A DNA stretch of 64,000 nucleotides from contig NZ_AP023361.1 in assembly GCF_014191545.1 (NCBI RefSeq), forward strand, positions 2,446,501 to 2,510,500, in the 5' to 3' direction. The position numbers and the translations under genes were made by a program. Below are positions 2,245 through 14,655 of the stretch, in pieces. Each line of letters begins with the position of its first letter. The first letter of the stretch is position 1. Source of the DNA: Terrihabitans soli (GTDB lineage: Bacteria; Pseudomonadota; Alphaproteobacteria; Rhizobiales; Methylopilaceae). The notes under the pieces are model-generated. The model was given only the letters and a program-made list of their open reading frames with translations, searched no databases and was not told the DNA's origin.

Positions 2245-2628
2245 ATGCCCGAAAACAAACCTAACGATCCTCGATCCCGCATCTTGCGTCTCATTCAGGA
2301 TCACTCCGACGAAAACGCCTGTTGGCTGTGGACCGGGGCCATGCACCCCCGCGTCCGTACGACCATGCAGTCGAAAGGTTGGTTCGGCAAGCCTCGAACC
2401 GTTACCAAAATACCGAAGCCGGTCATCTCGATAAACGGGAAGCCCGTCTCGGTGGTGCGTGCCCTCTGTCCCGATCTCCCACGCGGAGTTCGCATCTTCA
2501 ACACCTGCGGTCACGACCGTTGCGTGAACCTGAAGCATCACACCTTCAAGGGCACGTTCAACCGGCGCACCGAGACCCAGACTGAGGTTCCTTATGAATA
2601 CCGATCAACTGATCCAGAGCCATCCTAA
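2245..2628 (+). CDS. HNH-like homing endonuclease-type phage protein (127 aa)
   Basis: Start chosen at the ATG of MPENKPND, with AAAGGGTGAA before it. Visible motifs are an N-terminal CWLWTG box, a central strand with conserved-looking Arg-Ala-Leu (SVVRALCPDLPRG), and a C-terminal CGHDRCVNLKHH zinc/active-site segment. This combination is typical of short phage HNH endonucleases of the CWxWxG type, which nick or cut DNA using a His/Asn/His metal site. The protein ends soon after the motif. Its 3' end overlaps the next gene by 35 bases. It may be a free-standing homing enzyme or a host-directed nuclease. Confidence 0.65.
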   Translation: MPENKPNDPRSRILRLIQDHSDENACWLWTGAMHPRVRTTMQSKGWFGKPRTVTKIPKPVISINGKPVSVVRALCPDLPRGVRIFNTCGHDRCVNLKHHTFKGTFNRRTETQTEVPYEYRSTDPEPS

Positions 2629-2941
2629 CCCGGCTCTCCTGATCCTTCGGGGCGTGCGTCTCATTCTCAAGTCTCGCAGACGTTGGACCAAGGGTGCAAT
2701 GGCACGCGACCGTTTCGGTGAGACGGTTATGTCCTATGGAAGCGATGCTTCGTGTTTCTGTCTTTACGGCGCGGTTCGTCGTGCTTCGGATGAGCTGGGG
2801 CTCACCTCTTATCGAAGCTGGGCGATCACCAGCCTGAACACTGCGGCCGGCGGCTGCATGATCACATTCAATGACCGGGAGAAAACCCGGCACCAGGATG
2901 TGATTGCTCTGCTCGACCGAGCGATCCAGGAGGCGGCATGA
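2594..2941 (+). CDS. DUF6197-like protein, paralog 2 of 5
   Basis: 115 aa. Residues 11-25 (HPNPALLILRGVRLI) are nearly the same as in the paralog at 3264, so those two are the closest pair. Family marks: RRWTKGAMARDRFG, the box CFCLYGAVRRA, and TFNDREKTRHQDVIALLDRAI at the end. It overlaps the HNH gene upstream and the next paralog downstream (ATGA at 2938), forming one translational unit. Role unknown. The conserved Cys-rich box and FND motif suggest a small folded domain rather than a structural filler. Confidence 0.7.
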   Translation: MNTDQLIQSHPNPALLILRGVRLILKSRRRWTKGAMARDRFGETVMSYGSDASCFCLYGAVRRASDELGLTSYRSWAITSLNTAAGGCMITFNDREKTRHQDVIALLDRAIQEAA

Positions 2942-3267
2942 ACGAGCTGGTGCTGAACCTGCAAAAGGTTCGTGAATATCTGACGCCGAAAGGCCGATGG
3001 ACTCAACGTGCACTCTTTCGGGATGCGGCGGGGAACTCAATCTCCACGCTCGACGAATACGAGAACCGGGCGACCTGTGCGTGCCTACTCGGTGCAATCC
3101 ACATCTCGGTTCCGCCTCAACATATCGATTCCGTTAAGCGGGCGATTGTGGGCCAACTTCCACCGTCCGCGGCGGGTGTCATTCATTGGTTCAACGATGA
3201 TCTCGGCACGAGACAGAGCGATGTTCTGGCCGTGATCGACCGAGCGATTGAGAAGGTGGCGGCATGA
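2938..3267 (+). CDS. DUF6197-like protein, paralog 3 of 5
   Basis: 109 aa. Shows GRWTQRALFRDAAG, the box CACLLGAIH and WFNDDLGTRQSDVLAVIDRAI. It starts inside the stop of paralog 2 and ends inside the start of paralog 4, both as four-base ATGA overlaps. It lacks the HPNPALLILRG opening shared by paralogs 2 and 4, so the array was not made by simple head-to-tail copying of one unit. Confidence 0.7.
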   Translation: MNELVLNLQKVREYLTPKGRWTQRALFRDAAGNSISTLDEYENRATCACLLGAIHISVPPQHIDSVKRAIVGQLPPSAAGVIHWFNDDLGTRQSDVLAVIDRAIEKVAA

Positions 3268-3626
3268 ACGTCTATAAGAAAATCCAGAATCATCCGAACC
3301 CGGCCCTGTTAATTCTTCGGGGCGTTCGGCTCATTCTGTCGGACCCGAAACGATGGACGAAGGGTTCTCTCGCGAGAACGTCTCGCGGCAAAGAGGTCAC
3401 CGAGGTGTCTCCTTCGGCTTCTTGCTTCTGTCTCGAGGGTGCTCTGTTCCGAGCCGAACACGAGTTGAAGCTTTCGAATATCGATCGGGTATCCGCCCGC
3501 AGCATCATCCAGAGTGTGCTGCCGAAACCGTTCGGCATGTCGATCTGGCTCTTCAACGACAGTAAGCGCACCTCGCACAAGCGGCTGCTGAAGGTCATCG
3601 ACCTCGCGATCAAGGAAGCGGCGTAA
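3264..3626 (+). CDS. DUF6197-like protein, paralog 4 of 5
   Basis: 120 aa. Opens MNVYKKIQNHPNPALLILRG, matching paralog 2. Carries KRWTKGSLARTSRG, the CFCLEGALFRA box and WLFNDSKRTSHKRLLKVIDLAI. In the last motif the usual Ala/Asp before VLA is Lys-Arg, so this copy has drifted there. Start overlaps the stop of paralog 3. No function known. Confidence 0.7.
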   Translation: MNVYKKIQNHPNPALLILRGVRLILSDPKRWTKGSLARTSRGKEVTEVSPSASCFCLEGALFRAEHELKLSNIDRVSARSIIQSVLPKPFGMSIWLFNDSKRTSHKRLLKVIDLAIKEAA

Positions 3627-3878
3627 ATGCTCGAACTTGTTGTCTCGCGTACCGACGACATCGACCCCGAACAGCCTGACCCCGGTCCTCCGGCCGGAAC
3701 GGTCTGCAGAGTTCTGGGTCGCACCCGTGAAGGGAACCTGATCCTCGAAGGCTGGCCGGCGCCGGCGACCCCCTCCTTCCTCGAAGGTTGGATGGCCGAG
3801 GACTTTCGACCCGCATGTTCTCAGGAGCGTCTCGACTATGAGAGACATCTTCATCAACGCGAGGAAGTGGCTCGCTGA
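3627..3878 (+). CDS. Phage protein of unknown function (83 aa)
   Basis: ATG follows directly on the preceding TAA. The protein is acidic and Pro-rich at the start (DDIDPEQPDPGPPAG) and has a short beta-like middle (VCRVLGRTREGNLILEGWPAP). The last 40 bases overlap the next paralog in another frame. It interrupts the DUF6197-like array. No family recognised. Confidence 0.55.
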   Translation: MLELVVSRTDDIDPEQPDPGPPAGTVCRVLGRTREGNLILEGWPAPATPSFLEGWMAEDFRPACSQERLDYERHLHQREEVAR

Positions 3879-4197
3879 CCCCAAGCACTGGGTTCAGGGC
3901 GAGCTGTGCGTATACGACGACGTTAACAATCCCGATCTCAGAAAGGTGTCCTGCACCTGTCTGATGGGGGCTCTTGATCGTGCCTCTTCGATCAAGGCAA
4001 ACGACGCGCTGATATGGGCTGACTATGACGTCCTCGCATTCTTGAGGAAGTTCATCCCCAACACTGGTGATGGCAACGACATCGCCGGGTTCAACGATGA
4101 CACCAACACGACGCACGCCGATGTCCTGGCCGTGCTCGACCGCGCTATCGCGGCCTGCCCGTTGACCGAGGTCGAGAACCCGGTCGCCCACCACTGA
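3838..4197 (+). CDS. DUF6197-like protein, paralog 5 of 5
   Basis: 119 aa. Begins MRDIFINARKWLADPKHW, close in layout to the Trp motif of the others, then CTCLMGALDRA, and GFNDDTNTTHADVLAVLDRAI near the end, with a 12-residue C-terminal extension. The Cys-x-Cys-Leu-x-Gly-Ala box is intact. It overlaps the upstream gene by 41 bases. A palindrome that also covers the next gene's ribosome binding site follows its stop. Confidence 0.7.
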   Translation: MRDIFINARKWLADPKHWVQGELCVYDDVNNPDLRKVSCTCLMGALDRASSIKANDALIWADYDVLAFLRKFIPNTGDGNDIAGFNDDTNTTHADVLAVLDRAIAACPLTEVENPVAHH

Positions 4198-4220: not shown

Positions 4221-4796
4221 ATGCAGATCACCCTCAAAAGGGCTTTGAAACTCCGTAAGGAGATCGAGGCCACGCTCGCCGCGGCGAAGCTCGAGACCCG
4301 AGCCTCCTTCTCCCTTCTGGTCCCCAAGGTCCAGACCGATCTCGAAGACGTTATCAAACTCACCCAGGGTGAGCTGATCGCGAAAGCCCGCCGTCTCATT
4401 GAGCTGTCGACCGTTCTTCGCGTCCTTCGCATCGACATTTCGCAGGCCAATGCCAACGCCGGCGTCGATACACTGCTGGCCGAGATCGCTGATCGTGAGC
4501 GGGTGATGAAGCTCCTGAAATCGATCACCGACGCGGCGCCGATGGCAAGCATCGAACAGCTGACCGCTACCAAGGATCGCGCGGTCAAGAAGCTTGACGA
4601 TCCCGATTATTCGTCGGACTCGCTTGCGACCAATCTCGTCGACGACACAATCCGCGAGGAACTGTCGAAAGAAATTCTGAGCCTGAAGCGCACCAAGGAG
4701 ACGCTCGAAGACGAGCGTGCGGCGCTGAATGGCTCCACCCGCATAACTCTCACGAAGACGCAGGTCGAAACCCTCACGGGCTTCGGCTTGCTCTGA
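4221..4796 (+). CDS. Coiled-coil phage protein of unknown function (191 aa)
   Basis: Starts MQITLKRALKLRKEIE with AAGGAACC upstream. Almost the whole protein reads as amphipathic helix: heptad-like stretches at residues 5-75 and 125-170, with a short linker around residue 130 (DDPDYSSD). It resembles small phage structural or scaffold-like helical proteins in composition only, and I do not recognise a family. It is the last gene before a 360-base gap and the first tRNA. Confidence 0.7.
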   Translation: MQITLKRALKLRKEIEATLAAAKLETRASFSLLVPKVQTDLEDVIKLTQGELIAKARRLIELSTVLRVLRIDISQANANAGVDTLLAEIADRERVMKLLKSITDAAPMASIEQLTATKDRAVKKLDDPDYSSDSLATNLVDDTIREELSKEILSLKRTKETLEDERAALNGSTRITLTKTQVETLTGFGLL

Positions 4797-5160: not shown

Positions 5161-5237
5161 GCTCCCTTCGTCTAGCGGTCTAGGACGCCTCCCCTCTCAG
5201 GGAGGAAACGGTGGCTCGTATCCATCAGGGAGCGCCA
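5161..5237 (+). tRNA. tRNA-Glu(CUC)-like, copy 1, with 18-nt anticodon arm
   Basis: Full cloverleaf with encoded CCA: acceptor GCTCCCT/AGGGAGC with discriminator G, Glu-type D arm (GTCTAGCGGTCTAGGAC), T stem GGTGG/CCATC. The anticodon arm is 18 nt instead of 17: CCTCCC-CTCTCA-GGGAGG, meaning a 6-bp stem with a 6-nt loop, or a 5-bp stem with an 8-nt loop. The T loop begins CTCG rather than TTCG, so this copy may be weaker. Compared with copies 2 and 3 the anticodon stem differs by two compensated base pairs. Confidence 0.85.
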
Positions 5238-5254
5238 ATTCTTACGGAGAAGGT

Positions 5255-5470
5255 ATGCGCGAAGCTCTTCTTACATTCGTCGTGTTCGGCCCGGCTCTCG
5301 CCTTGGTGTTTGCTGCGGCTCGCCGGCTTTCCCATCGGTACAAGCGAAAAGCTCCGGTCGAGATGGAAACTATCACCATCCGGACGCTCGGTTATACGGA
5401 CGGAAACTTCAGCTATCACAGTGACCGGCCAATCTCGATCCAGATCACGCGCCCGAAACTCGCGAGGTAA
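5255..5470 (+). CDS. Small membrane-anchored phage protein (71 aa)
   Basis: ATG of MREALLTFVVFG follows GGAGAAGGT. Residues 4-24 (ALLTFVVFGPALALVFAAA) form one membrane segment, followed by a basic patch (RRLSHRYKRK) that would sit in the cytoplasm and a 40-residue soluble tail. Starts 17 bases after the tRNA, so both may come from one transcript. Function unknown. Confidence 0.6.
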   Translation: MREALLTFVVFGPALALVFAAARRLSHRYKRKAPVEMETITIRTLGYTDGNFSYHSDRPISIQITRPKLAR

Positions 5471-5472
5471 CA

Positions 5473-6102
5473 ATGTTCACAAGCACCTTCTGTTACCGGG
5501 GTCAGATCGACTTCCCGGAGTTCAGTGGTCTGCGCGTCATGATGATGCCGGTTGTATTGGGCGACCTCGGGTCAATCCCGGACATGCTCGCCTCGTATCG
5601 TGGTGTTCTGACCAAACTCTTCGCTCTCGGTGGCCATGCCGGTTCCGTCGGCTATGTCACCATCGACGAGAAACATCTCACTCCGGGTGACACAACCCGC
5701 CGCGGCGGTCTCCACGTTGATGGTGTCTATCAGGGGAAGATGGGGGCTTGGGGTGGCGGTGGCGGTTGGGGTTCTGTCGGCAACGGAATGCTGACGGTCT
5801 CCAGCTATCCGGCCTGTCGGGCATGGAACCAGCACTTCATCGGAATGCCGGGCGACGAGGGTGAATGCGACCATCTGATCGACCAGCTCGATCCGAAGGC
5901 CGAGCGCGTCTTCGGCGCCGGCGAGGTCTACTGGCTCGATGGTCTCTGTGTACACGAGTCCATGCCGGTCCCCGAAGAAACTGACCGGCAGTTCATCCGG
6001 CTTTCGCTCCCGAGCAACGGCCCGTGGTTCGAAGGTTACACGGAGAACCCTCTCGGCATTCGCCCGAGCGGTGAAATCCTTCCTCGTCGCGAATTCATGT
6101 GA
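5473..6102 (+). CDS. Possible 2-oxoglutarate/Fe(II) dioxygenase-like phage protein (209 aa)
   Basis: No close family name comes to mind, but the layout suits the double-stranded beta-helix oxygenases: His81-x-Asp83 in GGLHVDG, a Gly-rich loop (residues 94-104), then His161 in the segment EVYWLDGLCVHESMP and Arg172/Arg176 in RQFIRLSLPS, which would be the distal His and the 2-oxoglutarate Arg. The C-terminus (PWFEGYTENPLG) is Trp/Tyr-rich. Such enzymes hydroxylate proteins, small molecules or DNA bases. Metal and cofactor use here is inference. Starts 2 bases after the membrane protein. Confidence 0.5.
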   Translation: MFTSTFCYRGQIDFPEFSGLRVMMMPVVLGDLGSIPDMLASYRGVLTKLFALGGHAGSVGYVTIDEKHLTPGDTTRRGGLHVDGVYQGKMGAWGGGGGWGSVGNGMLTVSSYPACRAWNQHFIGMPGDEGECDHLIDQLDPKAERVFGAGEVYWLDGLCVHESMPVPEETDRQFIRLSLPSNGPWFEGYTENPLGIRPSGEILPRREFM

Positions 6103-6109
6103 GGCGGAA

Positions 6110-6325
6110 ATGAGGATCAAAGGCAAGCCCGTGCTTACGGGTAACAAGCGGCTTCGCCGTGGCTTCCTCGGCCGAGCGGTGATGCAGGTCGAGATCGAAA
6201 TCCCCACCGGTGTCGCTTTCGGCGGCAAGGATTACTGGACTTCTGGTCGACGCTATTGGCGTGACGCCCGGTGGTCTGATGTCCAGACGCGAGAAGCTCC
6301 CTTCTATGTGAAGGTCGCGGCGTAA
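6110..6325 (+). CDS. Phage protein of unknown function (71 aa)
   Basis: Start at ATG of MRIKGKPVLTGNKR, preceded by GAGGCGGAA. Basic N-terminus followed by beta-like segments and several Trp/Tyr (YWTSGRRYWRDARW). Ends in an overlap with the next start. No family recognised. Confidence 0.55.
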   Translation: MRIKGKPVLTGNKRLRRGFLGRAVMQVEIEIPTGVAFGGKDYWTSGRRYWRDARWSDVQTREAPFYVKVAA

Positions 6326-6516
6326 TGGCAAATCGCTACATCGTTGCTCGAAACACCGAAACCGGTCGGTGGGAGATCACCGCCGAATACCCGGAATCTG
6401 ACGGGACGGTCCTCACTCAAAAGCTCGAACGTGATTACGAGACGCAAGCTCTCGCTGCGTCCTGTGCCCGGTTTGTCTCCGGCATCGGAGATCAGGTCAT
6501 CGTCCACACCTCGTAA
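6325..6516 (+). CDS. Phage protein of unknown function (63 aa)
   Basis: MANRYIVARNTETGRWEI. Short alpha/beta protein whose start overlaps the preceding stop (TAATG). Seven bases after its stop the second tRNA begins. No recognisable motif. Confidence 0.55.
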   Translation: MANRYIVARNTETGRWEITAEYPESDGTVLTQKLERDYETQALAASCARFVSGIGDQVIVHTS

Positions 6517-6522
6517 CCAATT

Positions 6523-6599
6523 GCTCCCTTCGTCTAGCGGTCTAGGACGCCGGCCCTCTCAGGCCGGAAACGGTGGTTCGTATCCATCAGGGAGCGCCA
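6523..6599 (+). tRNA. tRNA-Glu(CUC)-like, copy 2, with 18-nt anticodon arm
   Basis: 77 nt with encoded CCA. Same acceptor, D arm and variable loop as copy 1. Anticodon arm CCGGCC-CTCTCA-GGCCGG (18 nt), T loop standard TTCGTAT. Differs from copy 3 at no position I can see. Sits between two small genes. Confidence 0.88.
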
Positions 6600-6618
6600 A
6601 TTCATAGAGAGGTTCGTA

Positions 6619-6804
6619 ATGGCAAGCCGGGACGACATGGTCGCGTATCTCGTCAGGTTCCATTCGATCGAGCAAATTGCCGAGCGGCTTCTCGACAAAA
6701 TGACAAAGGCCGAACAGCGGCAGCTCGACCAAGAGACAACGCAATATGTTCGGAACAACTCCCCCGAGGAACAGAAACGTCGCCGGAGGAAGTATGCACC
6801 CTAG
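6619..6804 (+). CDS. Small helical phage protein (61 aa)
   Basis: MASRDDMVAYLVRFHSIEQ with GAGAGG upstream. Two predicted helices and a very basic end (EEQKRRRRKYAP). May bind nucleic acid, judging only from charge. Located just after tRNA copy 2. Confidence 0.55.
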   Translation: MASRDDMVAYLVRFHSIEQIAERLLDKMTKAEQRQLDQETTQYVRNNSPEEQKRRRRKYAP

Positions 6805-6994
6805 TCATGGAGATGGGCACCACCATCACATTCTAGTCTTCCGGGAACGCCAGTTCCGTAGGAAGTTCCCTTTGCTGAAGCAGTTCTGGACGCCATATCC
6901 AGCGCTCGATGAAGTTACCCGCCTCGATCAAGATCGGTCCTTACGTCTGGAAGATCCAGCTAAGGTCGAAGACTTGGCAGAAGCGCGAGGGTAA
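6794..6994 (+). CDS. Doubtful small ORF (66 aa) overlapping two neighbours
   Basis: Opens with MHPSHGDGHHHH at the end of the previous gene and runs 86 bases into the HExxH gene in another frame. AGGAAG before the ATG is an acceptable ribosome binding site, and the His cluster may be chance. If real, it fills the otherwise empty 6805-6908. Kept as a low-confidence call. Confidence 0.25.
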   Translation: MHPSHGDGHHHHILVFRERQFRRKFPLLKQFWTPYPALDEVTRLDQDRSLRLEDPAKVEDLAEARG

Positions 6995-7232
6995 ATTCGG
7001 CTTCTGTCGTTTCGACGATTTTGCAATGGACATCGTCGACGATCTTCCACCGCTCTTCAAAGCGGAAATCGTTCATCACGAGATCGGTCACGCCATTTGG
7101 TGGACCTATAATCTGGACAGTCGCGAGCGGGAAGAACGCGCGATCATGTCCCTATCTCGTGGGTACATCGACCTGTGGGCTGACAATCCCGAACTCCTAC
7201 GGTGGTTCGCGGCCCAGCTCCCCAGTTCCTAA
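6909..7232 (+). CDS. Mini zinc-metallopeptidase-like phage protein (107 aa)
   Basis: Starts MKLPASIKIGPYVWKIQ. Contains IVHHEIGHAIWW at residues 58-69, the HExxH signature of zinc metallopeptidases, inside a helix as expected. A downstream Glu (in REREERAIM) could be the third ligand in gluzincin style. At 107 residues it is far shorter than a secreted protease and has no signal peptide, so it would act in the cytoplasm, if it is catalytic at all. Phages carry similar small HExxH proteins of unknown target. tRNA copy 3 follows its stop by 2 bases. Confidence 0.6.
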   Translation: MKLPASIKIGPYVWKIQLRSKTWQKREGKFGFCRFDDFAMDIVDDLPPLFKAEIVHHEIGHAIWWTYNLDSREREERAIMSLSRGYIDLWADNPELLRWFAAQLPSS

Positions 7233-7234
7233 TT

Positions 7235-7311
7235 GCTCCCTTCGTCTAGCGGTCTAGGACGCCGGCCCTCTCAGGCCGGAAACGGTGGTTCGTATCCATC
7301 AGGGAGCGCCA
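7235..7311 (+). tRNA. tRNA-Glu(CUC)-like, copy 3, with 18-nt anticodon arm
   Basis: Apparently identical to copy 2 over its 77 nt, including the 18-nt anticodon arm and encoded CCA. A palindrome copy begins 4 bases after it. Confidence 0.88.
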
Positions 7312-7381: not shown

Positions 7382-7810
7382 ATGAGAAAACTGATCAGCG
7401 CGGTGTTCATCACCGCTCTCCTCTGCATGTCTGCACCGTCAGTTTCGGAGGCTCGGGGCGCCGTCGAAGTCGCTCAGAAATATGTCGGAACCAATCCGAC
7501 CCACCGTCGCACCAAGTGGTGTGCCGAATTCGTCAACTTCATCGAGAAGAAGGTCGGCCGCCGTGGAAGCGGCTCAGCTTGGGCTAAGAGCTTCCTCACC
7601 TACGGCAAGCGGGTGTCGCAGCCGCAGAAGGACGACATCGCGGTCATGAACCGTGGCAACCCGAAGGGACGAAACGGCCACGTTGGTTACTTCGTCGGCT
7701 GGGCTCCGAACGGCAAAGCGATCGTGATCAGCGGCAACGGCAAGGGCAGCAAAGTCCGCATCGCCGAATATCCGCGAAGCCGGATCATCGAGTTCCGCCG
7801 ACCGGCGTAA
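7382..7810 (+). CDS. Secreted CHAP/NlpC-like cell-wall hydrolase (142 aa)
   Basis: Start at ATG of MRKLISAVFITALL with AGAGGTCAC upstream. Residues 1-24 are a Sec signal peptide with a likely cut after SVSEA. The mature part matches the short CHAP/NlpC-P60-like family often labelled TIGR02594: the catalytic Cys in KWCAEFVNF, GSAWAKSFLTYGK, and the His in GRNGHVGYFVGW, ending IIEFRRP. These enzymes cut amide bonds in peptidoglycan peptides. A signal peptide would let it act without a holin. It is flanked by two palindrome copies, so it may be separately regulated. A moron acting on the lysogen's wall is the alternative to a lysis gene. Confidence 0.72.
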   Translation: MRKLISAVFITALLCMSAPSVSEARGAVEVAQKYVGTNPTHRRTKWCAEFVNFIEKKVGRRGSGSAWAKSFLTYGKRVSQPQKDDIAVMNRGNPKGRNGHVGYFVGWAPNGKAIVISGNGKGSKVRIAEYPRSRIIEFRRPA

Positions 7811-7878: not shown

Positions 7879-9309
7879 ATGTTCAAAGTCATCTATTTCC
7901 AGAAGGGCTCGGATTTTCAGCAGGCCTGGACCGAGTATGACCCGGACAGCGGGAGCGACATTACGAAGCTTTGGACGGACGGGGCCGAGGCAGCTGAGTT
8001 CTGCCGGGATCAGATGTCCCTCCACCACGGCTATGTGTTCCAGCCGCGTATCGTTTCCGGGACCGAATGGCGTGCTCGCGAGGAGCGGCGCTTTTCCGAG
8101 GGCACCTATCGTGAACTGCCTTGGGTTGGTCAGCCGTGGTTCGACGGTAAGTACCCGGATCACTATGCCCACGTCTCGGTCGAGACCGAGGCTCAGGTCG
8201 CCTACACCGAGACCGAGGCGAAGGGTCATGCCGATCGGCAGACCCGCCTCAACGCAGGTCGTTATCTGACGAAATTCTTCTCCGATGTGTTGTCGGAAAC
8301 CCAAATTCGGGATTTGGCGACGGAATATGTCGCTCTTCTCGACGACTGCAAACTGCTGTTCACGGACAACCCGACGAAGATGGTCCGAGTTTATGTGAAC
8401 GGGCCGCATTCTTGTATGCAATATCCGGCGGATCATTTCCAATCCCGCTTCCACCCCGTTCGGGTCTATGCGGCCGGCGATCTGCAGCTCGCTTGGCTCG
8501 AGCGTGATGGCCAGATTACAGCTCGTTGCTTGGTCTGGCCGGAGCGGAAGATTTACGGCCGCATCTATGGAGACACCGCTCGTATCGAGCCTCGCCTCGC
8601 CGCTCTCGGCTATTCAAATGGAAGCTTGAACGGGGCACGTCTCAAACGGGTTCCGGTCGGCCGCTCGAAGCGTAAGTTCATTGCGCCGTACATCGACGGC
8701 CGTCAGCGGCTGACCGACGGTGGAGACTTCTTGGCCATCGATGCCGGAGGTGAGATCTTCGCTGACGGCACCGATGGCATCGCTCGCAATCCGATGACGA
8801 AGTGCGAGCGGTGTCGCCGGGGTGAAGAATTCCATGAGCACAACGGCTACTCCGTTCGAATTAACGGGGATGGTGGTGTTCGAATTTGGTGCCACCGCTG
8901 TGCTCACCGACACGCCGTTGATTGTCGTTATCACGGCGACCGGTTCCCTCGACGATTGGCGGTCGAAGTCGAAAACCAATTGTGGTCCCCCTGGGCGGCA
9001 GAGCAAAACTCTTTCGTCTGCGATGTTACTGGGCGGCGACATTCGAACAGGCATCTTGCCGTTCTTCATGATGGTCGACAGGTCCGCAGCAGCCTTGCTC
9101 GCGACGTTCGTCATATCGATGGTCGCCGAATTTTCGTTCTAACCGACGAGGCTGTTCGCCTCGATGACGGTACTTACTGGTCGCAGGAGATGTTTGCCGA
9201 ACACGGCTTTGTCTGCGCCATCACCGGTCGAAATTACCGGAATTGCGATCGACGGTCTCCGGGAGAGAACGTCTACCTCTACGCCCCGGCTAACGCCTCG
9301 GCAGCATGA
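7879..9309 (+). CDS. Large phage protein, tandem paralog A (476 aa)
   Basis: Starts MFKVIYFQKGSDF after GAGGGG. Alignable with the next gene over about 330 residues: WRAREERRFSEGTY, WFDGKYPDHYAHVSVE, YVNGPHSCM, FHPVRVYAAGDL, ARCLVWPERKIYG-IYGD. The C-terminal part differs: a Cys4-type pair (CERCRRG and WCHRCAHRH, about residues 310-350) that could hold zinc, then two repeat units ending in AEHGFVCAITGRNY. I know similar phage hypothetical proteins but no function. The conserved GPxSCM and VYAAGDL blocks suggest an enzymatic or binding core rather than a structural protein. Confidence 0.75.
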   Translation: MFKVIYFQKGSDFQQAWTEYDPDSGSDITKLWTDGAEAAEFCRDQMSLHHGYVFQPRIVSGTEWRAREERRFSEGTYRELPWVGQPWFDGKYPDHYAHVSVETEAQVAYTETEAKGHADRQTRLNAGRYLTKFFSDVLSETQIRDLATEYVALLDDCKLLFTDNPTKMVRVYVNGPHSCMQYPADHFQSRFHPVRVYAAGDLQLAWLERDGQITARCLVWPERKIYGRIYGDTARIEPRLAALGYSNGSLNGARLKRVPVGRSKRKFIAPYIDGRQRLTDGGDFLAIDAGGEIFADGTDGIARNPMTKCERCRRGEEFHEHNGYSVRINGDGGVRIWCHRCAHRHAVDCRYHGDRFPRRLAVEVENQLWSPWAAEQNSFVCDVTGRRHSNRHLAVLHDGRQVRSSLARDVRHIDGRRIFVLTDEAVRLDDGTYWSQEMFAEHGFVCAITGRNYRNCDRRSPGENVYLYAPANASAA

Positions 9310-9312
9310 ACC

Positions 9313-9338
9313 AAGGCCCTTCGGGGCCTTTTTCTTTT
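9313..9338 (+). terminator. Rho-independent terminator with UUCG tetraloop
   Basis: AAGGCCC-TTCG-GGGCCTT then TTTCTTTT. Begins 4 bases after the stop of paralog A and ends 13 bases before paralog B, repeating the layout of the terminator at 7836. Confidence 0.85.
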
Positions 9339-9350
9339 GGGAAACCCATC

Positions 9351-10688
9351 ATGTTTCAGGTTGTTGAGCTGACCCCGGAAGGGGAGCGGCCGGTTGTCGA
9401 CGACGCTGGTCAGGTCATGACCTTCGAGAACGGTTCGAAGGCCGCAGACCATGCCCGCCTGCTTGGCGGTAAACACCAACCTCGACCCGTCAAGGCCGAG
9501 GTGGATTGGCGTTCACGAGAACAGGCCCGTTTTGACTCCGGTCATTACGTCAAGGTGCCGTGGGTCGGGGAGAACTGGTTCGATGGGAAGTACCCGGATC
9601 ATTTCGTCCATGTCTCCGTCGAGAACTCCGGCATGGTCGCCTATACGGAAAGTGACGAGAAGGGTGCGGCCGATCGGCAGAATCAGGTCCGTGTCGGTCG
9701 CTATCTCGAACGCTTTTTCTCGAAGGAACTGACCTCTGCCGACATCGCTCGGCTTTCGGCGGAGTTTTCTGACCTCTTCGAGGAAAACCTGCTCCTGTTC
9801 GCGAAGACCGCCGATGAGATCGAGCACGTCTATATCACCGGCCCGAACTCGTGCATGGCCCACAAGGCCGAGGACTATAACTCCCCGTTCCATCCGGTTC
9901 GCGTCTACGCAGCCGGCGATCTGGCGGTTGCGTACATGACCCGTGAAGGGAAGATCACCGCTCGGTCGCTGTGCTGGCCCGAGAAGAAGATCCGATCGAC
10001 TATTTATGGTGACTCCGTTCGCTTGACACGGCTCCTGCAGGAAGCCGGTTTCTATCACTCGAACGATGGTTTCACAGGAGCCAAAATTCGGAAAATCGCG
10101 CACGGAGACGGGTATGTGATGCCCTATATCGACGCCGCAGAGGGTGTCGTCGACTGTGGTGATCATTTTGAGATCAGCTTCGGCAGCAACGTCGACTATG
10201 CGGCCGATGACACCAATGGGCTTACCTGTCCCATTGGTGAGTACTGTGAGTACTACGGCGAAAACCGGAACGAAGAATCCTACTACATTCGCGACCGTCA
10301 GGAAAACTGGTGCGAGACAGCTCTGGAGAACTACGGGTTCACCTGCGCTATGACCGATCATCACTATTCCGAGGACGTTGCCGTTTACATGGCGAACGGT
10401 GAAACCTGGAGCGAGTCCGCGTTCAATCGTTTCGGCGGAGTCTGCGCTCGAACCGAAGAGAACTATCACCTCGAAGACCTCGTGGAGATGGCGAACGGCG
10501 ACCACTGGCATATCGATCAGTTCGCCGAGCATGGCTTCGTTTGCCAGGGCAACGGGAAGAACTACCCCACCGATGATCAGGTGATCTTGGAGGACGGCCG
10601 TCGCTGGTCGTCGGATCACTTCCAACTTCACGGAGAGAGCGACCCAGCGACGGGCATGTTCTTTGAGAAGAAGAAGGATATTGCCTGA
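9351..10688 (+). CDS. Large phage protein, tandem paralog B with C-terminal repeats (445 aa)
   Basis: I prefer the ATG of MFQVVELTPEGERP because it lines up with the MFKVIYFQ start of paralog A and lies after the terminator. An in-frame ATG at 9306 would place the terminator inside the coding region. Core blocks match A (WFDGKYPDHFVHVSVE, YITGPNSCM, FHPVRVYAAGDL, WPEKKI). No Cys4 pair is present. The last 150 residues hold at least three about 30-residue repeats of the form: V-x-x-ANGE-x-W-x-x-x-x-F-x-x-HGFVC. These repeats are acidic and aromatic. The stop overlaps the next start (TGATG). Confidence 0.75.
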   Translation: MFQVVELTPEGERPVVDDAGQVMTFENGSKAADHARLLGGKHQPRPVKAEVDWRSREQARFDSGHYVKVPWVGENWFDGKYPDHFVHVSVENSGMVAYTESDEKGAADRQNQVRVGRYLERFFSKELTSADIARLSAEFSDLFEENLLLFAKTADEIEHVYITGPNSCMAHKAEDYNSPFHPVRVYAAGDLAVAYMTREGKITARSLCWPEKKIRSTIYGDSVRLTRLLQEAGFYHSNDGFTGAKIRKIAHGDGYVMPYIDAAEGVVDCGDHFEISFGSNVDYAADDTNGLTCPIGEYCEYYGENRNEESYYIRDRQENWCETALENYGFTCAMTDHHYSEDVAVYMANGETWSESAFNRFGGVCARTEENYHLEDLVEMANGDHWHIDQFAEHGFVCQGNGKNYPTDDQVILEDGRRWSSDHFQLHGESDPATGMFFEKKKDIA

Positions 10689-11709
10689 TGTCTGGATACG
10701 CAGCCACGGTCGAGACCGAGACCGAGACCAAAAACAAGGTCGGTCTGAACCTCCTGTTGGAGATGTTGCAAACCAAACGCCCCGCCGGTTCCAAAGCCGA
10801 GCGTCGGTTCATCAAGCGTTATCTGAAGCCACTCGGCTGCTCTCAGGACGGTTTTGGGAACCTGATCTTGCGGATCGGCGATGCCCCGGTTCTCTGGTCG
10901 TCTCACACCGACACAGTTCATCGTGAAGGCGGGACGCAGCATGTCGTCCTTGAGGGCGTCATCGCTCGTCTTGCGGCGAATTCCAAGTCGAACTGTCTGG
11001 GCGCGGATTGCACCGCCGGCGTCTGGCTCATGGTCGAGATGATCAGAGCCGGCGTCGAAGGTCTTTACATCTTCCATCGCGAGGAAGAATGCGGCGGGCG
11101 GGGTTCGCGGTTCATTGCCACCCGAACCCCCGAGCTTCTTGATGGCATCAAGTATGCCATCGCGTTTGACCGGTACGGTTACCAGTCGGTCATAACCCAC
11201 CAGTTCGATCGGTGCTGCTCTGACGAGTTCGGAGTGTCGCTCTCGAAGGCTTTGGGGGCAGCTTCAAACTCGATACCGGAGGCGTATTTACGGATACGGC
11301 CAACTATACCGACCTGATCGGAGAGTGCACCAATTTGTCGGTGGGTTATTTCAACCACCACACCTCCAAAGAATGCCAGGACATCGTATTCCTGAAGAAC
11401 CTCCGTGACCGTCTGATCAAACTCGACATCTCGGAACTCGTCAGCCACCGCAAAGCCGGTGAAGTCGAGTGGTTGCATCGGTACGAGAGCAACGGCACGA
11501 GCAGCTATGGTCGAATTCGGGCCTTCCGCGGCTGGGACAGTTGGGAAGACGACCTCCAGGGCGAGGCCGCTCTCACTGAGGCGGAAATCTTGGTCCGGAT
11601 CATCAAGGACCACCCGGAAGAGATCGCGTGCTTCCTGGAAGAATACGGCGTCTCTCCGACCGAGCTTCGCGAGGCGGTCTACAAATATGGGGGCGTCATC
11701 CCGCGATGA
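10688..11709 (+). pseudogene. M20-like metallopeptidase, split by a one-base frameshift
   Basis: The first frame carries the metal-binding opening HTDTVH, GADCTAGVWLMVEMI with the bridging Asp, the catalytic pair EEECGGRGS and AFDRYG, then stops at 11317 after KALGAASNS. Adding one G to the G5 run at 11254-11258 joins it to a frame reading KALGGSFKLDTGGVFTDTANY, then ECTNLSVGYFNHHT with the final metal His, and on to 11709. The joined protein is about 340 aa, a normal length for small phage M20-type hydrolases. A real mutation, a sequencing error and -1 slippage on the G run all fit. The GGG codon at 11255 can re-pair one base back. Confidence 0.75.
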
Positions 11710-13267: not shown

Positions 13268-13469
13268 GTCCAACTTTGCAATTCTTGACGTGAAGGCCGG
13301 CCGCGACGAACTCAAGGCGCATATCGGCTTCGACGACCGTCGGCCATCCCTCCCGGCCAAGAACCCAATCCCTGTCACGATCACCGGCGTTATCGACGGT
13401 GTCTGGGGTGAGGATGACGGCATCTCGCGTGAGTTCTCCGTGAAAGTCGATGAGGTGAAGCTTGGTTGA
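13257..13469 (+). CDS. Phage protein of unknown function (70 aa)
   Basis: Start at ATG of MKIESNFAILDVKAG, with GAGGA six bases upstream. Looks like a small beta protein (PVTITGVIDGVWGEDDG, REFSVKVDEVKL). Its 3' end overlaps rtcB. Confidence 0.55.
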   Translation: MKIESNFAILDVKAGRDELKAHIGFDDRRPSLPAKNPIPVTITGVIDGVWGEDDGISREFSVKVDEVKLG

Positions 13470-14655
13470 AGTTCGACGCCTCGAAAACGGAATGATTAAA
13501 CTCTGGACCGAGGGCGTGCCCGTCGAAGACGGCGCTATGCAGCAGCTCGAACAGGTGGCCAGCCTCCCCTTCATCTTCGGCCACGTCGCGGTTATGCCCG
13601 ACGTTCATTATGGCCTTGGTGCCACCATCGGCTCCGTGATCCCGACGAAGGGCGCTGTAGTCCCGGCCGCGGTCGGCGTCGACATCGGGTGCGGGATCGC
13701 CGGCTGGCGCACGGGTCTCCGTGCTGAGAACCTGCCGCACTTACCGGAACTCCGGAACAGGATCGAGCGAGCCATCCCGCATGGTCGCACGAATAACGGC
13801 GGCCCCGGCGACCGGGGAGCGTGGGAACACCCTCCGGCGTCGGTTCGCGCCAATTGGCACAACCTGTTTCCGGAATATGAACTACTGGTCGAAGCAACTC
13901 CGGCACTGGAAACCCGCCGGAGCCCGATCTATCAGCTCGGTACGCTCGGAACCGGCAACCACTTCATCGAGCTGGCCGTCGATCAGGACGATCATGTCTG
14001 GATCTTGCTTCACTCGGGGAGCCGCGGTGCGGGGGCGGCAATTGCAAACCACTACGTGGCAGAGGCCAAGCGCCTCTGTGCCGCGTGGCACGTCAATCTG
14101 CCGAACCCTGATCTTGCGTTCTTCCCGGAAGGCTCGGACGAATTCGACGCCTACCTCGAAGCGACGATCTGGGCTCAGGGTTATGCCGCGATAAATCGTG
14201 AGCTGATGCTCCAAGCGGTCTGGGACCTTCTCGACCGACCGATCATCCTCGAAAAGGTCGAGACTCCCCACAACTTCGTGGCTCGTGAGAACCACAAGGG
14301 TCAGAACGTCCTAGTCACGCGGAAGGGCTCGTCACGGGCTCGCAAGGGTGACCGGATTGTCATCCCCGGCTCGATGGGCGCGAAATCGTACATCGTCACC
14401 GGCAAAGGTAATCCGGAGTCGTTCAACTCCTGCTCTCACGGCGCCGGCCGAGCTATGTCCCGCACGGCAGCTCGTAAATCGATCAGCATGGAAGACCATC
14501 TTGCGAATATCTCGCACGTCGAGTGCCGCAAGACGGAAGACCTGCTCGACGAGAGCCCGGCCGCTTACAAAGACATCGACGCGGTTATCGCGGCGCAGTC
14601 TGACCTCATCGAGGTGACCCATACCCTTCGTCAGGTTCTGAACGTCAAAGGATGA
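13462..14655 (+). CDS. rtcB: RNA-splicing ligase RtcB (397 aa)
   Basis: TTG start with GAGGTGAAG upstream. RtcB joins RNA 2',3'-cyclic phosphate (or 3'-phosphate) ends to 5'-OH ends using GTP and Mn2+. Clear signature blocks: HVAVMPDVHYGLGATIGSV (residues 41-59), GVDIGCG (72-78), GTGNHFIEL (metal site), HSGSRGAG and SCSHGAGRAMSR, where the His is the guanylylated nucleophile. Length and end (LIEVTHTLRQVLNVKG) are those of a complete enzyme. In the bacterial host RtcB usually sits with rtcA/rtcR. Here it is embedded among phage miniproteins and upstream of tRNA genes, which suggests repair of cleaved tRNAs. Confidence 0.95.
   Translation: MVEVRRLENGMIKLWTEGVPVEDGAMQQLEQVASLPFIFGHVAVMPDVHYGLGATIGSVIPTKGAVVPAAVGVDIGCGIAGWRTGLRAENLPHLPELRNRIERAIPHGRTNNGGPGDRGAWEHPPASVRANWHNLFPEYELLVEATPALETRRSPIYQLGTLGTGNHFIELAVDQDDHVWILLHSGSRGAGAAIANHYVAEAKRLCAAWHVNLPNPDLAFFPEGSDEFDAYLEATIWAQGYAAINRELMLQAVWDLLDRPIILEKVETPHNFVARENHKGQNVLVTRKGSSRARKGDRIVIPGSMGAKSYIVTGKGNPESFNSCSHGAGRAMSRTAARKSISMEDHLANISHVECRKTEDLLDESPAAYKDIDAVIAAQSDLIEVTHTLRQVLNVKG

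What the first reader, a model, noticed from the sequence alone, without database searches (positions are those of the whole stretch)
5161..7311. Three phage tRNA-Glu genes with an 18-nt anticodon arm that covaries
All three copies keep a CTCTCA loop inside CCTCCC/GGGAGG (copy 1) or CCGGCC/GGCCGG (copies 2 and 3). The two stem differences are compensated on both strands, so the extra pair is real and under selection. A normal arm is 17 nt (5+7+5). Here it is 6+6+6, or 5+8+5 if the top pair opens. An 8-nt loop is the form of frameshift-suppressor tRNAs, and a 6-nt loop would be stranger still. Either could alter decoding or hide the loop from anticodon nucleases.
Basis: partly seen in the sequence, partly recalled or inferred. 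Interest (0 to 1): 0.8.

Follow-up and report, generated by a model that had tools for sequence, protein, structure and literature searches.

The report
Phage tRNA-Glu with six-pair anticodon stem
A group of related bacterial viruses carries its own glutamate transfer RNA whose code-reading arm is one base pair too long, a shape kept through much sequence change and possibly a sign that it does a job other than ordinary protein making.

Summary
Three + strand tRNA genes (5161-5237, 6523-6599, 7235-7311) have an 18-nt anticodon arm, 6 bp + CUCUCA + 6 bp. The host's two Glu genes and 29 of 29 Glu genes fetched from relatives have 17. It is not private to this prophage: 26 distinct CUC-anticodon genes in 18 phage records share the arm over different stems. 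Five of six arm pairs change on both sides; the closing pair is C-G in 25 and U-G in 1, and G-C in a further gene. So the closed 6+6+6 form is under selection. U33 is lost in 9 of 26 and a T-stem bulge occurs in 9 of 26, against 1 and 0 of 27 ordinary-arm Glu genes. The phages are kin. In eight records the tRNA lies just upstream of a GNAT-like protein (c8) and a peptidase; c8 is in 10 of 16 arm-bearing records and 0 of 22 records with other Glu-type tRNAs, a contrast confounded by kinship. My best guess, unproven, is a glutamyl-tRNA withdrawn from decoding that feeds c8. Rivals: evasion of anticodon nucleases (RtcB ligase in 4 of 18 records, not significant), ordinary codon supply, and +1 decoding, for which I found no dependent gene.

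The parts
5161..5237 (+). tRNA-Glu(CUC)-like gene, copy 1; differs from copies 2 and 3 by two compensated stem pairs and T54 to C
5188..5205 (+). 18-nt anticodon arm of copy 1, CCTCCC CTCTCA GGGAGG
6523..6599 (+). tRNA-Glu(CUC)-like gene, copy 2
6550..6567 (+). 18-nt anticodon arm of copy 2, CCGGCC CTCTCA GGCCGG
7235..7311 (+). tRNA-Glu(CUC)-like gene, copy 3, identical to copy 2
7262..7279 (+). 18-nt anticodon arm of copy 3
7879..9309 (+). c8 family protein, first copy (476 aa); YxxxxxSCM motif; no Pfam family at E 0.01
9306..10688 (+). c8 family protein, second copy (460 aa); AlphaFold2 pLDDT 92; GNAT-like core, LIM-like repeats at the C terminus
10688..11317 (+). c9 peptidase (phrog_4191), first part; split here by a frame change, one ORF in the 10 kin records aligned
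11335..11709 (+). c9 peptidase, second part in another frame
13462..14655 (+). RtcB-type RNA ligase of the same prophage (bears on the rival RNA-repair reading)
   Evidence: phrog_1075 E 4.5e-131

Best explanation
Shown: a tRNA-Glu(CUC) of one phage kin group whose anticodon arm is 6 bp + 6 nt + 6 bp, kept closed by selection, and in eight records placed just upstream of a c8-c9 gene pair. Inferred: the tRNA is still charged with glutamate, because the D-stem pairs and the CUC anticodon are kept, but the extra pair turns and shifts the anticodon, so it is a poor elongator. It would then be a dedicated Glu-tRNA donor that c8, a GNAT-like protein, uses to add glutamate to a peptide or protein, with the c9 peptidase removing or trimming the product. 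The charging, the exclusion from ribosomes and the c8 reaction are all untested. The confidence given is for this mechanism; the existence of the class I hold near certain. I lowered it from 0.33 on rechecking, because the 22 control records were picked by eye and are mostly UUC.
For: Arm conserved with two-sided changes in 5 of 6 pairs; closing pair formed in 26 of 26. CUC 26 of 26 and purine at 37 26 of 26, but '33' is U 17, C 8, G 1; in 27 ordinary-arm Glu genes (15 chromosomal, 12 phage) U33 is kept in 26 (my reading of the list). One bulged base in the T stem in 9 of 26 against 0 of 27, p = 0.0007; in record G418 both 18-nt-arm genes have it and both 17-nt-arm genes do not. U11-A24 and U13-G22 in 26 of 26. 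Of 16 records found by tRNA sequence, 10 hold c8, against 0 of 22 records with other Glu-type tRNAs, p = 1.7e-5; at 30 kb or more 9 of 12 against 0 of 19. tRNA to first ATG of the c8 frame 3-1995 nt, same strand, in 8 records. c8 core: the eight best Foldseek rows in PDB are chains of two families, ATE1 and MprF, which use aminoacyl-tRNA; Sba18 is 13th and FemX 18th. Precedent: non-proteinogenic tRNA-Gly of S. aureus (PMC4052509, passages).
Against: The fold evidence is weak: best Foldseek E 5e-3 with TM about 0.2; VIA-align best Z 7.6 over 81 residues, and its top rows are ordinary acetyltransferases, a level its own notes call common. c8 is found in 70 of the 80 kin loci kept while a Glu-type tRNA was seen in only 5 of 80, so c8 does not need a nearby phage tRNA. 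The 10 of 16 against 0 of 22 contrast is confounded by kinship (arm-bearing records share many genes), and the 22 controls were picked by eye, 20 of them by a UUC gene. Six of the 16 lack c8, some being short. The T loop is ordinary in most members (T54 24 of 26, A58 24 of 26), so EF-Tu binding may be normal. U33 is kept in 17 of 26. A CoA-type P-loop is not clearly absent: a loose pattern matches somewhere in 14 of 45 cores.
Confidence: 0.3

Rival explanations
1. Nuclease evasion: a working Glu-tRNA, or a decoy, whose closed, lengthened arm is not cut by a host anticodon nuclease, so the phage keeps reading GAG when host tRNA-Glu is destroyed. A variant: one spare loop nucleotide lets an RtcB-sealed tRNA survive a nuclease that removes the wobble base.
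For: RtcB in the window prophage, in BDU-MI-1 about 2.3 kb from the tRNA, in G062 and in G418; the window's RtcB is only distantly similar to those of BDU-MI-1 and G062. RloC removes the wobble nucleotide, and its 3' fragments hybridized predominantly to the tRNA-Glu probe (PMC2610378, passages). Phage tRNAs with altered loops are proposed to escape host tRNases (PMC10264068, start of abstract and two passages).
Against: RtcB in 4 of 18 arm-bearing records against 1 of 11 kin records without the arm, p = 0.36. This host has no RloC/PrrC-type protein above the Pfam cut-off (two weak matches below it). Most other tRNAs in these records get an ordinary triplet anticodon. It does not explain loss of U33 or the T-stem bulge.
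Confidence: 0.28
2. +1 frameshift or four-base decoding: the top pair opens and an 8-nt loop reads GAGN, with the variable base (U, C or G) as a fourth anticodon base.
For: Loop count 2+4+2 fits a four-base anticodon; the variable base is U 17, C 8, G 1, never A, like a wobble base; two phages with several copies mix these types (G062, G076).
Against: The closing pair is formed in 26 of 26. The frame scan lists no +1-related pair of conserved ORFs in the window prophage; its split peptidase is shifted -1/+2. The ten +1 pairs that one search lists in other records were not examined one by one.
Confidence: 0.13
3. Ordinary codon supply: an elongator tRNA-Glu for GAG in a lineage where a longer arm is tolerated.
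For: Glu anticodon kept in 26 of 26; GAG is 172 of 309 Glu codons in 28 prophage ORFs against 158 of 333 in 11 host ORFs.
Against: A tolerated flaw would hardly be kept paired over different stems, or coexist with normal 17-nt Glu genes in one phage. The codon bias is small.
Confidence: 0.18

Closest known systems
tRNAs with a 6-bp anticodon stem: tRNA-Pyl and mammalian mt-tRNA-Ser(UCN) (PMC7609411, passages)
   Same: Six base pairs in the anticodon stem.
   Different: Those have other compensations (one base between acceptor and D stem, three-base variable arm) and, as I recall, a 7-nt loop; here the loop is 6 nt, the acceptor-D linker has two bases and the anticodon is Glu.
selC* tRNA-Cys and minor 8/4 tRNA-Sec (PMC7609411, passages)
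   Same: An unpaired base in the T stem at about 51a; 6 of 26 members here have a bulge at about that place and 3 more nearer its outer end.
   Different: No 8/4 acceptor branch or long variable arm here; the bulge is not universal.
Frameshift-suppressor tRNAs such as SufB2 (PMC7803779, start of abstract in listing)
   Same: One extra nucleotide in the anticodon loop if the top pair is open.
   Different: Here the extra base is paired in 26 of 26 genes; +1 decoding untested.
Phage tRNAs that escape tRNA-targeting defences (PMC10264068, start of abstract and passages; PMC11555353, listing only)
   Same: Phage-encoded tRNA; in PMC10264068 with an anticodon loop unlike the host's.
   Different: In what I saw, those proposals concern loop mutations or supplying specific tRNAs; here the arm architecture changes.
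Non-proteinogenic S. aureus tRNA-Gly used by FemXAB (PMC4052509, passages)
   Same: tRNAs with altered conserved elements, thought to be spared from translation for an aminoacyl transferase.
   Different: There the changes are in the T stem and positions 18-19; here mainly in the anticodon arm, and the enzyme is only inferred.

Membership tests
canonical tRNA-Glu | cloverleaf with encoded CCA | tested here: met
   Rfam lists copies 2 and 3, not copy 1
canonical tRNA-Glu | Glu-type D stem (U11-A24, U13-G22) and base 47 missing (identity elements recalled, not from a call) | tested here: met
   U11-A24 and U13-G22 in 26 of 26; 4-nt variable loop in the window copies
canonical tRNA-Glu | 17-nt anticodon arm (5+7+5) with U33 | tested here: not met
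   18-nt arm in all 26; base before CUC is U in 17 of 26, window copies included
canonical tRNA-Glu | charged with glutamate and used at GAG | not testable with these tools
   needs RNA work
+1 frameshift-suppressor tRNA | extra nucleotide in an open anticodon loop | tested here: inconclusive
   extra nucleotide present, but the pair can close in 26 of 26
+1 frameshift-suppressor tRNA | a gene that needs the shift | tested here: inconclusive
   none listed in the window prophage; pairs in other records not examined
nuclease-evading phage tRNA | loop differs from host isoacceptor | tested here: met
nuclease-evading phage tRNA | a matching host nuclease and resistance to it | not testable with these tools
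   no RloC/PrrC above cut-off in this host; other nucleases not searched
dedicated aminoacyl-tRNA donor | linked aminoacyl-tRNA-dependent transferase | tested here: inconclusive
   c8 linked; GNAT-like core only weakly like ATE1, MprF, FemX
dedicated aminoacyl-tRNA donor | weakened EF-Tu or ribosome features | tested here: inconclusive
   U33 lost 9 of 26, T-stem bulge 9 of 26; T loop mostly normal
6-bp anticodon-stem tRNAs (Pyl, mt-Ser UCN) | 7-nt loop on a 6-bp stem (loop size recalled) | tested here: not met
   6-nt loop

The most novel reading that the evidence does not exclude
A phage-encoded tRNA-Glu that has left ribosomal decoding and serves as the glutamyl donor of a phage aminoacyl-tRNA-dependent tagging system (c8 transferase plus c9 peptidase), with the 6+6+6 arm as the device that keeps it off the ribosome.
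Probability: 0.26. Interest if true: 0.88.

Novelty: new variant of a known kind. Interest (0 to 1): 0.62.

Why it matters
Anticodon arms of 5+7+5 are described as highly conserved (PMC7609411, passages). A conserved 6+6+6 arm on Glu tRNAs of one phage kin group is a natural experiment on what decoding, charging and nuclease recognition require of a tRNA. If the donor reading holds, some phages carry their own non-ribosomal tRNA for modifying peptides, a new answer to the old question of why phages carry tRNA genes. My literature searches (open-access PMC only, judged from listings and the passages read) turned up no description of this arm or of c8; that is not proof that none is in print.

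Tried and rejected
Sequencing error or chance: rejected; same arm in 26 distinct genes of 18 records. Private to this prophage: rejected. Convergence in unrelated phages: not needed; arm-bearing records share many genes and in eight the tRNA precedes c8-c9. Spread in bacterial genomes: a pattern scan of 397 genomes of the order gave this genome (3) and one match in G352 that ARAGORN does not call as a tRNA; that pattern misses the CCCCTCAG type. The genome-contig scan gave 9 stretches, none with all six pairs on a tRNA, but that pattern required AG at 14-15, and records near this genome may be left out. Two bacterial contigs have unclosed 8-nt Glu loops (L074, L071), not followed. Dropped before A4: L131/L140 (aberrant T loop, no CCA), L137 and L149 (UUC anticodon, with an odd T loop or a D-loop insertion), L145 (two genes with D-loop insertions); their records G065, G067, G070 and G071 are among the 16. 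The 22 controls were picked by eye; 20 of the matched genes are UUC and 9 pair only 3 of 5 in the register I scored, so they are Glu-type rather than proven ordinary. Misparse: the script listed window copy 1, L155 and L307 under 7 nt and L137 in the class; I corrected this by hand (26 against 27). One search used 28, and the line 'U33 lost 9/26 v 0/27' is wrong (L073 has C33, so 1 of 27); neither p value is used. T4-type RNA ligase PF09511: 0 of 15 records, but its control rang nowhere, so no conclusion. Pfam named no family for c8 above a cut-off; a solved-structure sequence search gave one chance-level match. No att repeat was found for the prophage ends, so its limits are not set. Other split genes in G062: one looks like a decayed HNH gene, one is probably an antisense ORF, and one at about 76186 (-1/+2) was not followed. 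A CoA P-loop pattern was no help.
Full report
Observation. ARAGORN finds three tRNAs at 5161-5237, 6523-6599 and 7235-7311 (+) and cannot assign their anticodon. Each arm is 6 bp, CTCTCA, 6 bp, 18 nt in all. The window is G000:C1:2446501-2510500 of an unnamed 3.1 Mb genome. The host's own Glu-CTC and Glu-TTC genes have 17-nt arms, as do 29 of 29 Glu genes fetched from relatives. Copies 1 and 2 differ at two inner stem pairs, both compensated, and at position 54 (T to C in copy 1). All three window copies also have T instead of A at 58. The extra closing pair is the same C-G in all three, so its support must come from outside the window.

Relatives. DNA-pattern scans of viral contigs, BLAST against phages, and kin loci gave 26 distinct genes with the arm in 18 records, the window included; all 26 have a CUC anticodon. 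One is the named Bradyrhizobium phage BDU-MI-1, whose record labels its gene tRNA-Glu-TTC. On alignment A4, 95.8% of cells pair, against 33-52% when partners are slid; five of the six arm pairs have two-sided changes, the closing pair is C-G 25, U-G 1, and one inner pair is broken in 7 of 26. One more gene, left out of A4 because of a D-loop insertion, closes with G-C (L145). So the pair is maintained as a pair and the closed 6-nt loop is what selection seems to see. L131/L140, L137, L149 and L145 were left out before counting.

What is and is not conserved. CUC is present in 26 of 26 and a purine follows it in 26 of 26; the base before it, U33 in ordinary numbering, is U 17, C 8, G 1. In 27 ordinary-arm Glu genes (15 chromosomal, 12 phage) U33 is kept in 26 (list). 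A one-base bulge in the 5' strand of the T stem occurs in 9 of 26, against 0 of 27. Most T loops are normal (T54 24 of 26, A58 24 of 26; the two with T58 are the window sequences). Other tRNAs predicted in 15 arm-bearing records (Pro, Arg, Trp, Met, Asn, Thr, Gln, Cys, Leu) were given an ordinary triplet anticodon, except one in G062 read '(gata)'. Record G418 carries two 18-nt-arm and two 17-nt-arm Glu genes side by side.

Setting. Arm-bearing records share many genes. In eight of them, the window included, the tRNA lies 3-1995 nt upstream of one or two c8 genes followed by c9, on the same strand; in the window a CHAP-domain gene (7382-7810) lies between. In BDU-MI-1 c8 lies about 9 kb downstream across the record's start. 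c8 was found in 10 of 16 arm-bearing records (window not among them; four of the 16 carry the genes left out of A4) and in 0 of 22 records with other Glu-type tRNAs, p = 1.7e-5; at 30 kb or more 9 of 12 against 0 of 19. The 22 were picked by eye, 20 of them by a UUC gene, and kinship inflates the contrast. c8 is found in 70 of the 80 kin loci kept, only 5 of which show a Glu-type tRNA.

What c8 and c9 may be. c9 matches phrog_4191, peptidase, and M28 peptidases only below the cut-off. c8 has no Pfam family and invariant Y176, C183, Y201, R220, G258 and D276 in 45 sequences. AlphaFold2 gives pLDDT 92 for the whole protein and 95 for the core. Foldseek of the core lists chains of ATE1 (arginyl-tRNA-protein transferase) and MprF in its first eight rows, but with E of 5e-3 and worse and TM near 0.2. 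VIA-align puts common acetyltransferases first, Z 7.6 over 81 residues, with an aminoacyl-tRNA-dependent peptide synthase at Z 5.4 in row 50. I take from this a GNAT-like core and LIM-like repeats behind it; aminoacyl-tRNA use is a guess supported by rank, not by significance.

RNA repair. RtcB is in the window prophage, BDU-MI-1, G062 and G418: 4 of 18 arm-bearing records against 1 of 11 kin records without the arm, p = 0.36. Many records are fragments. RtcB-like matches occur in 648 of 50,697 phage records overall. RloC excises the wobble base, and its fragments hybridized predominantly to the tRNA-Glu probe (PMC2610378, passages), so a spare loop base would be a neat answer; the host has no such protein above cut-off.

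Mechanism. A closed 6-nt loop, loss of U33 in a third of members, T-stem bulges and coexistence with normal Glu genes in one phage point away from ordinary decoding; the kept Glu features point to charging by GluRS; gene order points to c8. I therefore commit to a dedicated glutamyl-tRNA donor at 0.30 (lowered from 0.33 because of the weak control), with nuclease evasion at 0.28, ordinary codon supply at 0.18 and +1 decoding at 0.13. The class itself I hold near certain.

Known things. Six-pair anticodon stems are known in tRNA-Pyl and mt-tRNA-Ser(UCN), and a T-stem base at 51a in selC* tRNA-Cys (PMC7609411, passages). None of the passages I read describes a 6+6+6 arm. The searches covered only open-access papers.

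Noticed in passing
window 10688-11709: The c9 peptidase is split by a -1/+2 frame change near 11258-11290 in this prophage; it is a single ORF in the 10 kin records aligned.
   Followed up: partly
window 994, 4199, 7315: Perfect palindrome CTTACCGCGGTAAG repeated three times, once right behind tRNA copy 3: a possible operator or promoter element.
   Followed up: no
window 2594-4197: Four small ORFs that all match phrog_762 (2594-2941, 2938-3267, 3264-3626, 3838-4197): apparent tandem paralogues.
   Followed up: no
L145 (minus strand, about 4252-4383 and a second gene near 5348-5575) and L149 257-360: Glu-type tRNA genes with the long arm whose D loop carries an insertion of about 27 nt (L149), 55 nt and about 150 nt (L145); intron or extended D arm is not known.
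   Followed up: partly
L272, L281, L282, L287, L288, L292, L293: In seven of the 80 kin loci a tRNA-Arg(TCT) lies just downstream of the c9 peptidase.
   Followed up: no
L074 (Sphingomonas sp. H160509) and L071 (Chloroflexaceae MAG): Glu(CTC) tRNAs with an 8-nt loop but no closing pair (CCTCTCAC, CCTCTCAA) in bacterial contigs.
   Followed up: no
G062:C1:69506-69578: A tRNA-like gene that ARAGORN reads with a four-base anticodon (gata) next to a tRNA-Pro in a phage record with two long-arm Glu genes.
   Followed up: no
window 5473-6102: 209-aa protein of unknown function (phrog_8970) between tRNA copies 1 and 2, with relatives in large phages.
   Followed up: no
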